Of a DNA stretch of 64,000 bases, positions 34,825 to 55,552 are shown in pieces. Positions within the stretch are counted from its first letter, which is position 1; each line of letters starts with the position of its first letter. The stretch lies in the NCBI RefSeq assembly GCF_030816295.1, contig NZ_JAUSXV010000001.1:4127386-4191385 (forward strand), in the 5' to 3' direction. This DNA is from Microbacterium natoriense (GTDB taxonomy: Bacteria > Actinomycetota > Actinomycetes > Actinomycetales > Microbacteriaceae). The notes below the pieces were generated by a model. It had not been told where the DNA came from. It did not search any database and saw only the letters and a program-made list of their open reading frames with translations. The position numbers and the translations under genes were made by a program.

Positions 34825-34967
34825 TTCCGGTCGCAGTTGTTGCCGTCAGCGCGCTCGGACTCGGTGTTCCGGGTGCAGTTCGTGCCGCTCGATCGGCGGC
34901 GGAGCGACACCAACTGCGCCCGGAGTAAGGCATACGGCTGCCGCAGCGACACCAACTGCGCCCGGAA
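34825..34967. repeat. REP-like array, left of the nuclease gene
   Basis: Four copies of a roughly 22-bp unit with core GCAGTTNNTGYCG: two on the plus strand (34825-34846, 34867-34889) and two inverted (34903-34924, 34945-34967). The order plus-plus-minus-minus lets the array fold as a two-tier hairpin. It ends about 60 bp before the nuclease start. The same family recurs at 36027-36168 and 50575-50630. Confidence 0.75.
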
Positions 34968-35028
34968 CGACGCCCCCAGCCTGTGGATAACTTCCGCGAA
35001 CATCCACGTGTGATGCGACGGTTGAGCC

Positions 35029-35997
35029 ATGGGAAATCCACGCCCCCTGCCCGCGGAGCTCGGAAGACGCTTCAGCGTGCAAGATGCGCTGCGCGCCGGA
35101 GCGAGCAGCGGGCGCCTTCGGCGCTCGGATCTCGAGACCCCCTTTCGCGGCGTGCGCTCCACAACGGTCGCAGCGGATCTCAGCGCACTCGATCCGTTCG
35201 AGAGGCAGGCCGCCGCGAGGCGGATCCGTGCGAGAAGGTATGTTCCGCGTCTGCGAGATGACCAGTTCCTCAGTCATGAGAGCGCGGTCGCCCTGTACGG
35301 AGGCCCGCTCCCGCTCGTCATAGACCGAACTGGTCCCGTCGATGGCATGGAGCTCCCCGTGCACGTCGCCACTCTCGGCCGCGGCACACTCGTCCGGGCC
35401 AACGGCGTAGCAGCGCATCGGGCGAATCCGCTGAACACCCGTATCGCGAATCGCGACGGCATCCGCCTCGCCTCGACAGCCACCGCGTGGGCGCAACTCG
35501 GAGCCTGGAGCGTGCTCGATCTTGTCGCGCTCGGCGACTTCTTCTGCCGTGTCTGGCGATCAGGGCCGGGTCGACGTGACGTCGGCAGACGTCCTCTCGC
35601 CACGGTCGACGAGTTGAGAGCCGCGATCTCTGCGGGGCGACGCACGGGAATCGCTCGTCTGCGCGAGGCTGTGGAACTGATCCGTGAAGACTCCTGGTCC
35701 CCGCGCGAATCGATGATCCGTTTCCACCTCATCGCCGCTGGTCTTCCGGAGCCCTCGCTAAACCACGACGTCTACGACTCGAACGGACGCTTCCTCGGCT
35801 GCGTCGATCTGGCCTACCCCGAGCAGAAGATCGCGATCGAGTACCAGAGCGTCCTCCACCACTCCCGCTATGCCGCGGATGTCGAACGCATCGCCGCCCT
35901 CCGCGCCGCGGGCTGGGTCGTCATCGAGATCACGAGCGACCTCTTCGCCAGGCCCGACGTCATGATCGACCGCGTCCGCCGGGCGCTTCGCGCCTGA
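35029..35997 (+). CDS. AbiEi-like / DUF559 (Vsr-like) endonuclease-domain protein
   Basis: 322 residues. The C-terminal 100 residues look like a DUF559/Vsr-type PD-(D/E)xK fold: Glu227 (SPRESMIR), Asp260 (GCVDLAYP), Glu271-x-Gln273 (IAIEYQ), then HHSRYAADVERIAALRAAGWVVIEIT. The N-terminal part (SHESAVALYGGPLP, VHVATLGRG) resembles AbiEi antitoxin-type regulators. No AbiEii toxin gene is nearby. It stands alone between two REP-like arrays. Such proteins are common in Microbacteriaceae (recollection); the role is unknown. No good ribosome site is visible at the ATG. Confidence 0.78.
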   Translation: MGNPRPLPAELGRRFSVQDALRAGASSGRLRRSDLETPFRGVRSTTVAADLSALDPFERQAAARRIRARRYVPRLRDDQFLSHESAVALYGGPLPLVIDRTGPVDGMELPVHVATLGRGTLVRANGVAAHRANPLNTRIANRDGIRLASTATAWAQLGAWSVLDLVALGDFFCRVWRSGPGRRDVGRRPLATVDELRAAISAGRRTGIARLREAVELIREDSWSPRESMIRFHLIAAGLPEPSLNHDVYDSNGRFLGCVDLAYPEQKIAIEYQSVLHHSRYAADVERIAALRAAGWVVIEITSDLFARPDVMIDRVRRALRA

Positions 35998-36026
35998 ACC
36001 GGAAGCAGCGCTCCCCCGTTGCCGCG

Positions 36027-36168
36027 TTCCGGTCGCAGTTGCTGCCGCCGCTCGTTCTTTCGGTCCGTTCCGGTCGCAGTTGCTGCCGCGTAACGACGCA
36101 TCCGACGGCATCAACTGCGACCGGAGTGTGGCGAGCGGATGCTGCGGCGGCATGAACTGCGACCGGAA
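36027..36168. repeat. REP-like array, right of the nuclease gene
   Basis: Four copies of the same unit (core GTCGCAGTTNNTGCCG): plus at 36027-36048 and 36068-36089, inverted at 36106-36125 and 36148-36168. It mirrors the left array in order and spacing and begins 30 bp after the nuclease stop. Copies here are closer to each other than to the left array, which suggests local duplication or conversion. Confidence 0.75.
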
Positions 36169-50316: not shown

Positions 50317-50661
50317 ATGAGCATCCCCATCGCCACAGAAGCGTCGGTTCTTGCGCCAATCAACCCCGATTGGACCATCGCCGAGCTCGTCGAATGGCTC
50401 GCCGACGACTCCCGTCAGCACGACGTGGCGTTGCAGCATCCGCTCGCGCTGATCGAGCGAGCCGTCACCGGCGAGACGTGGATCCGCACGCCGTCGACCG
50501 TGGCACTCGTGCGCTCGCTGACCTCCGCCGCACGCACGCACGGTGCCGTCGTGATCGCCGACCTGACGCCGTTCGAGTCGCAGTTCGTGCCGCTCGGAGG
50601 CACGTCAAGCGGCACGAATCGCGACCGGAAGGAGCGGATGCCCGAGCCTCAGGTCGCCTGA
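50317..50661 (+). CDS. small unknown protein, tail built from REP-like DNA
   Basis: 114 residues. I recognise no family. The body (TIAELVEWLADDSRQHDVALQHPLALIERAVTGETWIRTPSTVALVRSL) looks like a genuine small soluble protein with a hydrophobic core. The last 25 residues (FESQFVPLGGTSSGTNRDRKE) are encoded by the inverted REP-like pair at 50575-50630. GATTCT lies six bases before this ATG. It faces the MocR gene 20 bp away and overlaps the DUF4407 gene by 13 bp at its end. Confidence 0.5.
   Translation: MSIPIATEASVLAPINPDWTIAELVEWLADDSRQHDVALQHPLALIERAVTGETWIRTPSTVALVRSLTSAARTHGAVVIADLTPFESQFVPLGGTSSGTNRDRKERMPEPQVA
50575..50630. repeat. REP-like inverted pair within a gene end
   Basis: GTCGCAGTTCGTGCCGCT (50577-50594) on the plus strand and an inverted copy at 50608-50630 form a hairpin. 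They are of the same family as the arrays at 34825-34967 and 36027-36168. The pair lies inside the 3-prime end of the small gene. Confidence 0.7.
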
Positions 50662-54274: not shown

Positions 54275-55552
54275 TCAGGCCATCGCGGCCGAGGCCGCCT
54301 CGTCCTCGGTCGTCGCCACGAGCTGACCGCAGGCGCCGTCGATCTCCTTGCCGCGGGTGTCGCGGAGCGTCGTCGGGATGCCGGCGTCGTTGAGACGGCG
54401 CACGAACTCGTTCTGCACATCCTTGTCGGACGACGTCCAGATCGAGCCGGGCGTCGGGTTCAGCGGGATCGGGTTCACGTGCACCCAGCCGCGACCGCGG
54501 GCGTTGAGCTTCTCGGCCAGAAGATCCGCACGCCAGGCGTGATCGTTCATGTCCTTGATGAGCGCGTACTCGATCGAGACGCGGCGGCCGGTCTTGGCGT
54601 AGTAGCCGTAGGCTGCGTCGAGCGCCTCGTCGACCTTCCAGCGGGAGTTCACCGGGATGAGCTCGTCGCGCAGGTGGTCGTCGGGAGCGTGCAGCGAGAG
54701 CGCGAACGTCACCGGGATGCCCTCGTCGGCGAGCTTGTTGATCGCGGGCACGAGGCCGACGGTCGAGACGGTGATGCCGCGGGCGCTCATGCCGAGGCCG
54801 TCCGGCTGCGCGGCGACCATGACGCGCACGGCGTCCATCACCCGCTTGTAGTTCGCGAGCGGCTCACCCATGCCCATGAAGACGATGTTGCTCACGCGCT
54901 CCATGCTGTGATCATCGGCCTTCTTGCCGCCGAGGCCGCCCTCGGCGATCAGCCGGTTCGCCCGGACGATCTGCTCGACGATCTCTGCGGTCGACATGTT
55001 GCGCGTGAGTCCGGCCTGGCCCGTCGCGCAGAACGGGCAGTTCATGCCGCAGCCGGCCTGGCTCGACACGCACAGCGTGATGCGGCCGGGGTAGCGCATG
55101 AGCACCGACTCGACGAGGGCGCCGTCATGCAGCCGCCACAGGAACTTGATGGTGTCGCCACGGTCGGTCTCGAGGCGGCGCACCTCGGTGAGCAGCGAGG
55201 GGAGCATTCCTCCGACGAGGTCGTCGCGGATGCCGGCGGGCAGATCGGTCATGTCGGCCGGGTCGGACGTGTAGTGCGTGAAGTAGTGCGTCGACAGCTG
55301 CTTCGCACGATATCCAGGCAGCCCCAGTTCTTTGACCTTCTCGATGCGCTCGGCGGGGGTGAGGTCGGCGAGGTGCACGGGCGGTTTGCCGCGCTTGGGG
55401 CTTGCGAACTGCAGCAGCGGACGCCCTTCGGCATCCTTCTGCTGGGTCCAGCCCTCTGTCTGGGGCCGCACCTGGGTGCCGGTCGCGCGGACCTTTCCCT
55501 GCGCGGGCGCTGTCGCGGGGCGCGTCTCGCGCGCGCGGGGATTCTCGGTCAT
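54275..55552 (-). CDS. rlmN: 23S rRNA (adenine-C2)-methyltransferase RlmN
   Basis: 425 residues. It is a radical SAM enzyme that methylates A2503 of 23S rRNA (and A37 of some tRNAs). The iron-sulfur motif CGMNCPFC is present after SSQAG, with [14 protein letters not shown], and the C-terminal Cys in DGACGQL. An N-terminal extension of about 40 residues rich in Arg and Pro is found in actinobacteria. GGAGGG is directly before the ATG. It converges on the quinone reductase gene. Confidence 0.93.

What the first reader, a model, noticed from the sequence alone, without database searches (positions are those of the whole stretch)
34825..36168. REP-like plus-plus-minus-minus arrays on both sides of a lone DUF559/AbiEi-like nuclease gene
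Eight copies of a 20-23 bp unit (core GCAGTTNNTGYCG) bracket one gene. Left and right arrays have the same order (two direct, two inverted) and similar length (about 143 and 142 bp). REP elements flanking a RAYT transposase gene look like this, but here the enclosed gene has an AbiEi-like N-terminus and a Vsr/DUF559 PD-(D/E)xK C-terminus. The nuclease might nick or mobilise the repeats, or the unit might be a mobile cassette.
Basis: partly seen in the sequence, partly recalled or inferred. Interest (0 to 1): 0.75.

Follow-up and report, generated by a model that had tools for sequence, protein, structure and literature searches.

The report
Nuclease gene bracketed by private repeats
A common but unexplained bacterial nuclease gene sits between copies of its own short inverted repeat, whose sequence differs from species to species and is scattered through the genome, which looks like a gene-plus-repeat system that evolved separately from the known REP/RAYT one.

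Summary
Eight ~21-nt units bracket a 322-aa gene; inner units form inverted pairs exactly 59 bp long, and 14 further places in the chromosome carry them. Homologues in Microbacterium and other genera are bracketed the same way, each by its own motif: shared left/right repeat (score >=18) at 72 of 91 Microbacterium loci (6 of 244 shifted windows, 0 of 182 cross-locus pairs) and 37 of 51 other-genus loci (0 of 156, 0 of 102); 1 of 104 other genes. The model (pLDDT 95) is an AbiEi-like DNA-binding part plus a Vsr/I-Bth0305I-like nuclease. Where no gene for a repeat family was found, 0 of 10 resolved sites keep an intact copy, against 7 of 9 in a species with it; three sites carry different families in different species. 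Arms conserve sequence more than pairing. No Y1 (RAYT-type) transposase was found in this genome. Best reading: a repeat-associated nuclease system, partly like REPIN-RAYT but with an unrelated enzyme and duplex half-sites. Binding, cleavage and copying are inferred; no new insertion was caught.

The parts
34825..34845 (+). left array, unit 1
34867..34887 (+). left array, unit 2 (left arm of the inner 59-bp inverted pair)
34905..34925 (-). left array, unit 3 (right arm of the inner 59-bp pair)
34947..34967 (-). left array, unit 4
35029..35997 (+). gene for the 322-aa AbiEi-like / DUF559 (Vsr-like) protein
35029..35685 (+). AbiEi-like DNA-binding part (residues 1-219)
35692..35994 (+). Vsr / EDxHD-like nuclease domain (residues 222-322)
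36027..36047 (+). right array, unit 1
36068..36088 (+). right array, unit 2 (left arm of the inner 59-bp pair)
36106..36126 (-). right array, unit 3 (right arm of the inner 59-bp pair)
36148..36168 (-). right array, unit 4
50572..50630 (.). dispersed +- copy of the same repeat, 59 bp, elsewhere in the window

Best explanation
A repeat-associated nuclease system. SHOWN: members of the gene family are bracketed on both sides by an inverted repeat private to their lineage; the same repeat is scattered elsewhere in several of these genomes; arms keep their sequence and the pair its 59-bp length while the centre drifts; in one three-species comparison intact copies are missing from the species in which no cognate gene was found. 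INFERRED: one protein binds each ~21-bp arm as duplex DNA through its AbiEi-like part; two proteins face each other on the 59-bp pair and their Vsr/EDxHD nuclease domains nick or cut the unspecific centre; repair from another copy maintains, spreads or overwrites repeats. The upstream array probably also autoregulates the gene, as AbiEi operators do. The gene itself is largely inherited with its chromosomal neighbours.
For: Private flanking motif: 72/91 Microbacterium and 37/51 other-genus loci at score >=18, shifted windows 6/244 and 0/156, cross-locus 0/182 and 0/102; 1/104 other genes, that one being the neighbour between two hairpins of a second cassette. Dispersed copies: 14 further places in the own genome; GGTATGAG..CTCATACC occurs in 3 of 50 genomes: two whose homologue is flanked by exactly that motif (L052, L057) and one flanked by CGTATGAG (L059). 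Gene-repeat coupling: at G228 C-type sites, intact C-type in 7/9 resolved sites of G066 (gene present) and 0/10 of G005 (none found), Fisher 0.0007. C-type pair length departs from the usual in 10/38 listed copies of genomes with no C-flanked homologue in hand and 0/37 listed copies of G074, G228 and G066 (capped list; Fisher 0.001). Duplex half-sites: partner arms no more alike than shuffled partners in G036, G021 and own outer pairs, yet spacing is 59 in 15/15 own and 16/16 G228 copies measured. Fold: AbiEi-like plus I-Bth0305I/Vsr-like. Published geometry: the AbiEi relative Rv2827c has 23-bp repeats 13 bp apart, 59 bp in all (PMC7319586 passages); I-Bth0305I dimerises on nearly 60 bp (PMC3943268 passages). 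E227, H277, D284 invariant and D260 >=90% in 62 sequences. Y1 transposase in 1 of 33 genomes, not the own one.
Confidence: 0.55

Rival explanations
1. Regulator only: an AbiEi-type repressor with an idle or unrelated nuclease domain; the arrays are its operators, at its own gene and at a regulon of dispersed genes.
For: AbiEi and Rv2827c bind paired 23-bp inverted repeats and autoregulate; the left array ends 61 bp before the start codon; some dispersed copies lie upstream of genes (my reading of the sequences).
Against: Does not explain an array downstream of the gene as well, copies just after stop codons, lack of intact copies where no gene was found, exchange of families at one site, or invariant nuclease residues.
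Confidence: 0.2
2. Mobile cassette or composite transposon: the arrays are the ends of a unit that moves gene and arrays together, solo arrays being MITE-like relics.
For: A second cassette with three copies of its own hairpin is present in G166 and absent at the aligned place in G000; 3 of 20 gene-less loci beside the same upstream gene hold a solo hairpin of a type seen at other loci; extra copies lie within 3 kb of the gene at 9 of 42 loci with matched arms, two of them near-identical loci; 5 of 14 non-flanking copies in G036 lie within about 35 kb of the gene.
Against: The G166 difference replaces a block with an 83%-identical neighbour gene, not a clean insertion; no target duplication seen; the gene keeps its upstream neighbour in 16 genomes of other species; 2 plasmid and 1 phage records with partial hits only.
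Confidence: 0.12
3. Host hairpins: terminators or other structural elements that lie beside this gene by accident of intergenic position.
For: Several copies lie just after stop codons (crude gene calls); single-stranded folding is strong.
Against: Motif shared by the two flanks of one gene but by 0 of 284 cross-locus pairs; 1 of 104 other genes shows it; arms are mostly not kept complementary; some copies sit upstream of genes (my reading).
Confidence: 0.05
4. True REP/REPIN-RAYT system whose transposase lies elsewhere in the genome.
For: Same layout: private repeats on both sides of one gene and scattered copies.
Against: No Y1 transposase found in the own genome nor in 32 of 33 genus genomes, while the same search rings in E. 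coli; enzyme unrelated; no GT(A/G)G head in the unit.
Confidence: 0.02

Closest known systems
REP / REPIN with RAYT (TnpA-REP)
   Same: One gene flanked on both sides by private inverted repeats, scattered extragenic copies made of two inverted units around a variable spacer, repeats diverging together with the protein (passages of PMC2817692 and PMC8049555)
   Different: Enzyme is AbiEi plus Vsr-like, not an HUH Y1 transposase; no GT(A/G)G head; arms conserve sequence more than pairing; fixed 59-bp geometry; Y1 gene in 1 of 33 genomes only
I-Bth0305I, EDxHD homing endonucleases, and Vsr
   Different: Free-standing gene, with an AbiEi-like recognition part instead of NUMOD-type parts; many repeat copies flank and surround the gene
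AbiEi / Rv2827c antitoxins of type IV toxin-antitoxin systems
   Same: Likely fold of residues 2-219; Rv2827c operators are pairs of 23-bp inverted repeats with 13-bp gap, 59 bp in all, two pairs in tandem
   Different: Fused to a nuclease; no nucleotidyltransferase toxin gene among the four neighbours checked (SDR, FAA hydrolase, two ABC permeases); repeats on both sides and genome-wide
DUF559 / MTES_1575 proteins
   Same: 36 and 19 of 62 aligned family members match these Pfam families
   Different: Named only as domains of unknown function or putative nucleases; none of the 14 held papers naming DUF559 mentions dispersed repeats in title or abstract start as listed

Membership tests
REP/REPIN-RAYT | gene between the repeats encodes a Y1 (HUH) transposase | tested here: not met
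   Protein is AbiEi/Vsr-like; PF01797 not found in the own genome nor in 32 of 33 genomes
REP/REPIN-RAYT | private inverted repeats on both sides of the gene | tested here: met
REP/REPIN-RAYT | GT(A/G)G head on each repeat | tested here: not met
   Own units begin (T/C)TC with no GTAG or GTGG head; head as described in PMC2817692 passages
REP/REPIN-RAYT | palindromic pairing preserved by compensating change | tested here: not met
   Partner arms not above shuffled partners in G036, G021 (inner columns only) and own outer pairs; own inner pairs slightly above, 0.023
REP/REPIN-RAYT | dispersed extragenic copies | tested here: met
   14 further places in own genome; other genomes
EDxHD (Vsr-like) homing endonuclease | catalytic-domain fold | tested here: met
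EDxHD (Vsr-like) homing endonuclease | catalytic residues in the order E, D, H, D | tested here: inconclusive
   E227, H277, D284 invariant and D260 >=90% in 62 sequences; motif order recalled, active sites not superposed
EDxHD (Vsr-like) homing endonuclease | cuts a cognate site and copies its gene there | not testable with these tools
   needs biochemistry and crosses
AbiEi antitoxin | AbiEi fold | tested here: inconclusive
AbiEi antitoxin | adjacent AbiEii-type nucleotidyltransferase toxin gene | tested here: not met
   Four neighbours checked: SDR, FAA hydrolase, two ABC permeases
AbiEi antitoxin | binds paired inverted repeats | not testable with these tools
   Only the geometry (59 bp) agrees with Rv2827c operators
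Insertion sequence / MITE | target-site duplication and clean empty sites | tested here: inconclusive
   No empty site in the same-species strain (11 of 12 filled, 1 unresolved); between species, sites without an intact copy are remnants, unmatched sequence or another family

The most novel reading that the evidence does not exclude
A new, order-wide class of genome-resident element in Actinobacteria: AbiEi-Vsr fusion nucleases that recognise a private 59-bp duplex inverted repeat, cut its centre and use repair to keep, multiply and overwrite repeats, so that rival lineages take over the same intergenic sites. It would be a second origin of the REPIN-RAYT way of life with unrelated chemistry, and it would give a role to one of the commonest unexplained nuclease families of these bacteria.
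Probability: 0.4. Interest if true: 0.93.

Novelty: new variant of a known kind. Interest (0 to 1): 0.82.

Why it matters
Homologues of this protein were found in 227 of 247 Microbacterium genomes and in 262 of 396 genomes of the order, 71 of 107 genera; where a source names them it is mostly 'hypothetical' or 'DUF559 domain-containing' protein. A role for them would touch many genomes. A gene-repeat partnership unrelated to RAYT would show that such partnerships arise more than once. The many natural protein-motif pairs (43 distinct 8-nt cores among 72 loci) are ready-made material for learning how an AbiEi-type part reads DNA.

Tried and rejected
Clean cassette loss between strains: rejected for the one case found; the difference spans a replaced block, and the G166 gene contains a run of N in the assembly. 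Recent movement within the species: no support, 11 of 12 sites filled in both strains and one unresolved because its halves lie on different contigs of G166. RAYT: no Y1 gene found. Residue-base covariation: mutual information gave suggestive pairs (residues 131, 120, 138, 40), but sister pairs gave no single pair beyond permutation (smallest p reached in 15.5% of permutations), and the tenth-best p, below all 200 permutations, is confounded by pair distance. An outer TC in all 72 registered motifs is not evidence, because registration was made on TC; 83 of 92 loci gave a four-arm consensus, and of these nine on a hand-made list and two others without register were left out. The gene context of 12 dispersed sites by crude ORF calls was noisy, three sites even scoring as inside ORFs. 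An early control included shifted windows that overlapped the true flanks; it was replaced. Defence families: only weak hits. Plasmids and phages: 2 and 1 partial hits. Foldseek's own PDB ranking was never obtained; only the VIA second look was.

Literature: the listings of searches showed me no paper linking DUF559 or AbiEi-Vsr proteins with dispersed repeats; of PMC12306157, PMC8049555, PMC2817692, PMC3943268, PMC7319586 and PMC9403480 I saw passages only. The I-Bth0305I paper is not held. Subscription papers and preprints were not searched, so this is no proof of absence from print.

Odds left as they were.

Full report
What is there. Two arrays, 34825-34967 and 36027-36168, each with four ~21-nt units in the order ++--, bracket a 322-aa gene at 35029-35997. 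The inner pair of units is an inverted repeat exactly 59 bp long, with a 17-nt centre of no fixed sequence; it is 59 bp in 15 of 15 inner pairs measured in this genome, of 16 places known. Beyond the two arrays, 14 further places in the 4.19-Mb chromosome carry the same units as ++--, ++-, +-- or +- groups, one of them in this window at 50572-50630. Linkers and centres are not conserved between places. The pattern hits 56 times (51 in the 16 groups, 5 single), the reversed control 11 times.

It is a family-wide arrangement. Homologues were found in 227 of 247 Microbacterium genomes at E <=1e-10 and in 262 of 396 genomes of the order, 71 of 107 genera. I took loci from the best-scoring rows of these capped lists and scored the best ungapped match, in either orientation, between the 300 bp left and the 300 bp right of each homologue. 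At score >=18: 72 of 91 Microbacterium loci, against 6 of 244 windows shifted along the same loci and 0 of 182 left/right pairs from different loci; 37 of 51 loci of other genera against 0 of 156 and 0 of 102. Dropped beforehand for contig edges: L037, L054, L056, L207 and L224; L035 was left out as the contig of L040. L038 and L083 are the same locus, and some other pairs are near-identical, so the loci are not fully independent. The repeat is thus shared by the two sides of one gene but not between loci. Among 104 genes called in the window and six 20-kb stretches only one reached 18, and it is the neighbour lying between two hairpins of a second cassette. 19 of 91 and 14 of 51 loci did not reach the threshold, and the two paralogues in the own genome show no matched arrays.

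Each lineage has its own motif. Among 72 Microbacterium loci that could be put in register there are 43 distinct 8-nt cores; C at position 8 is common (64 of 72). Motif distance rises with protein distance (Mantel r 0.51, p 0.001), which shared ancestry alone can also give. Cores include CGGTCGCA, CCGTGGCA, GAATCGCG, GAGGAGCG and GGTATGAG.

Scattered copies. In 50 genomes, CCGGTCGCA..TGCGACCGG (A) occurred in 20, CGAATCGCG..CGCGATTCG (C) in 22 and GGTATGAG..CTCATACC in 3; the reversed controls gave 0 for A and C and one hit in each of two genomes for the third. The third fits well: two of the three genomes have a homologue flanked by exactly that motif, the third (G014) one flanked by CGTATGAG. 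A and C are not so clean: 10 of the 20 and 15 of the 22 genomes with hits had no homologue of that flank motif in my set, in which only one or two homologues per genome were read. A more sensitive search of 12 genomes found no full-length homologue in G002, G040 and G242 and only one, with another motif, in G083. Repeats thus also occur without a cognate gene.

What happens without the gene. Of the 18 C-type copies listed for G228, two flank its gene; I took the other 16 and looked at the same places in two relatives. In G066, which has a C-type gene, nine places were resolved: seven hold a C-type copy and two hold an A-type array. In G005, where no C-type gene was found (9 of 10 candidates scored), ten were resolved: none holds an intact C-type copy, two hold A-type hairpins, three or four hold fragments of an arm, the rest nothing recognisable. 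One place in each relative had over 700 bp between the flanks and was left out; six in G066 and five in G005 were not resolved. Fisher 0.0007; the places are not fully independent. At three places (L335, L339, L343) the species differ in which family sits there. Among listed C-type copies, pair length departs from the usual in 10 of 38 copies of genomes with no C-flanked homologue in hand (4 of 13 in G040) and in 0 of 37 of G074, G228 and G066 (capped list; Fisher 0.001); a few of the odd ones may be unrelated. At the orthologous place beside the upstream SDR gene, 20 genomes without the gene there were read: 6 have a hairpin, 3 of them of a type seen at other loci.

Movement. Of 12 own-genome places tested, 11 are filled in the same-species strain G166, with the expected units; the twelfth is split between contigs. 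G166 has a second cassette, with three copies of its own hairpin, at a place where G000 has none; but the difference is a block that includes a neighbour gene only 83% identical, so it looks like replacement by recombination. Extra copies lie within 3 kb of the gene at 9 of 42 loci with matched arms, two of these loci being near-identical, and in G036 5 of 14 non-flanking copies lie within about 35 kb of the gene (binomial 2e-5, chosen after seeing the data). I caught no new insertion.

Hairpin or duplex. If the folded hairpin were the recognised form, the two arms of one copy should match each other better than arms of different copies. They do not in G036, in G021 (inner columns only, the outer 8 nt being fixed by the search) or in the outer pairs of the own genome (fractions 0.21, 0.52 and 0.44); own inner pairs are slightly better (0.023). 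Length is fixed while the centre varies. This favours two duplex half-sites read by a protein pair.

Mechanism. Most likely, one AbiEi-like part binds each arm, two proteins meet on the 59-bp pair, and their nuclease domains act on the centre. Repair would then keep, copy or overwrite the repeats. Every step after the association is inferred. The regulator-only rival is the strongest alternative; the downstream array, the lack of intact copies where no gene was found and the conserved nuclease residues speak against it.

Known kinds. It works partly like REPIN-RAYT but is no member: the enzyme, the head sequence and preserved pairing were tested and not met. It is not filed as an AbiEi antitoxin, since no toxin gene is among the four neighbours checked. 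The listings of eight searches showed no paper that links these proteins to repeats, within the limits of the held library.

Noticed in passing
L016 right flank (G000 about 1.70 Mb), joined query 1895-1940: A roughly 45-bp piece next to one array matches more than 25 further places in G166: a second, unrelated dispersed repeat.
   Followed up: no
G000:C1:2335432-2336375 (L182): A paralogue of the nuclease gene split into two reading frames, without matched arrays.
   Followed up: partly
G000:C1:3948903-3949820 (L002): A 36%-identical paralogue with only a weak hairpin upstream and no matched arrays.
   Followed up: partly
G166:C8:65257-67511 (L180): A second nuclease cassette with three near-perfect copies of its own hairpin, the third one gene further on; these are the only three exact hits of the A pattern in that genome.
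   Followed up: partly
window 55037-55049: A lone exact match to the repeat core with no partner within the 121 bases read around it; probably chance or coding sequence.
   Followed up: partly
G040 C-type copies: Pair lengths 54, 56, 60 and 70 instead of 55 in a genome without the gene, as if the spacing rule had been relaxed.
   Followed up: partly
L335, L339, L343: The same intergenic place carries a different repeat family in different species, with flanking linkers changed too.
   Followed up: partly
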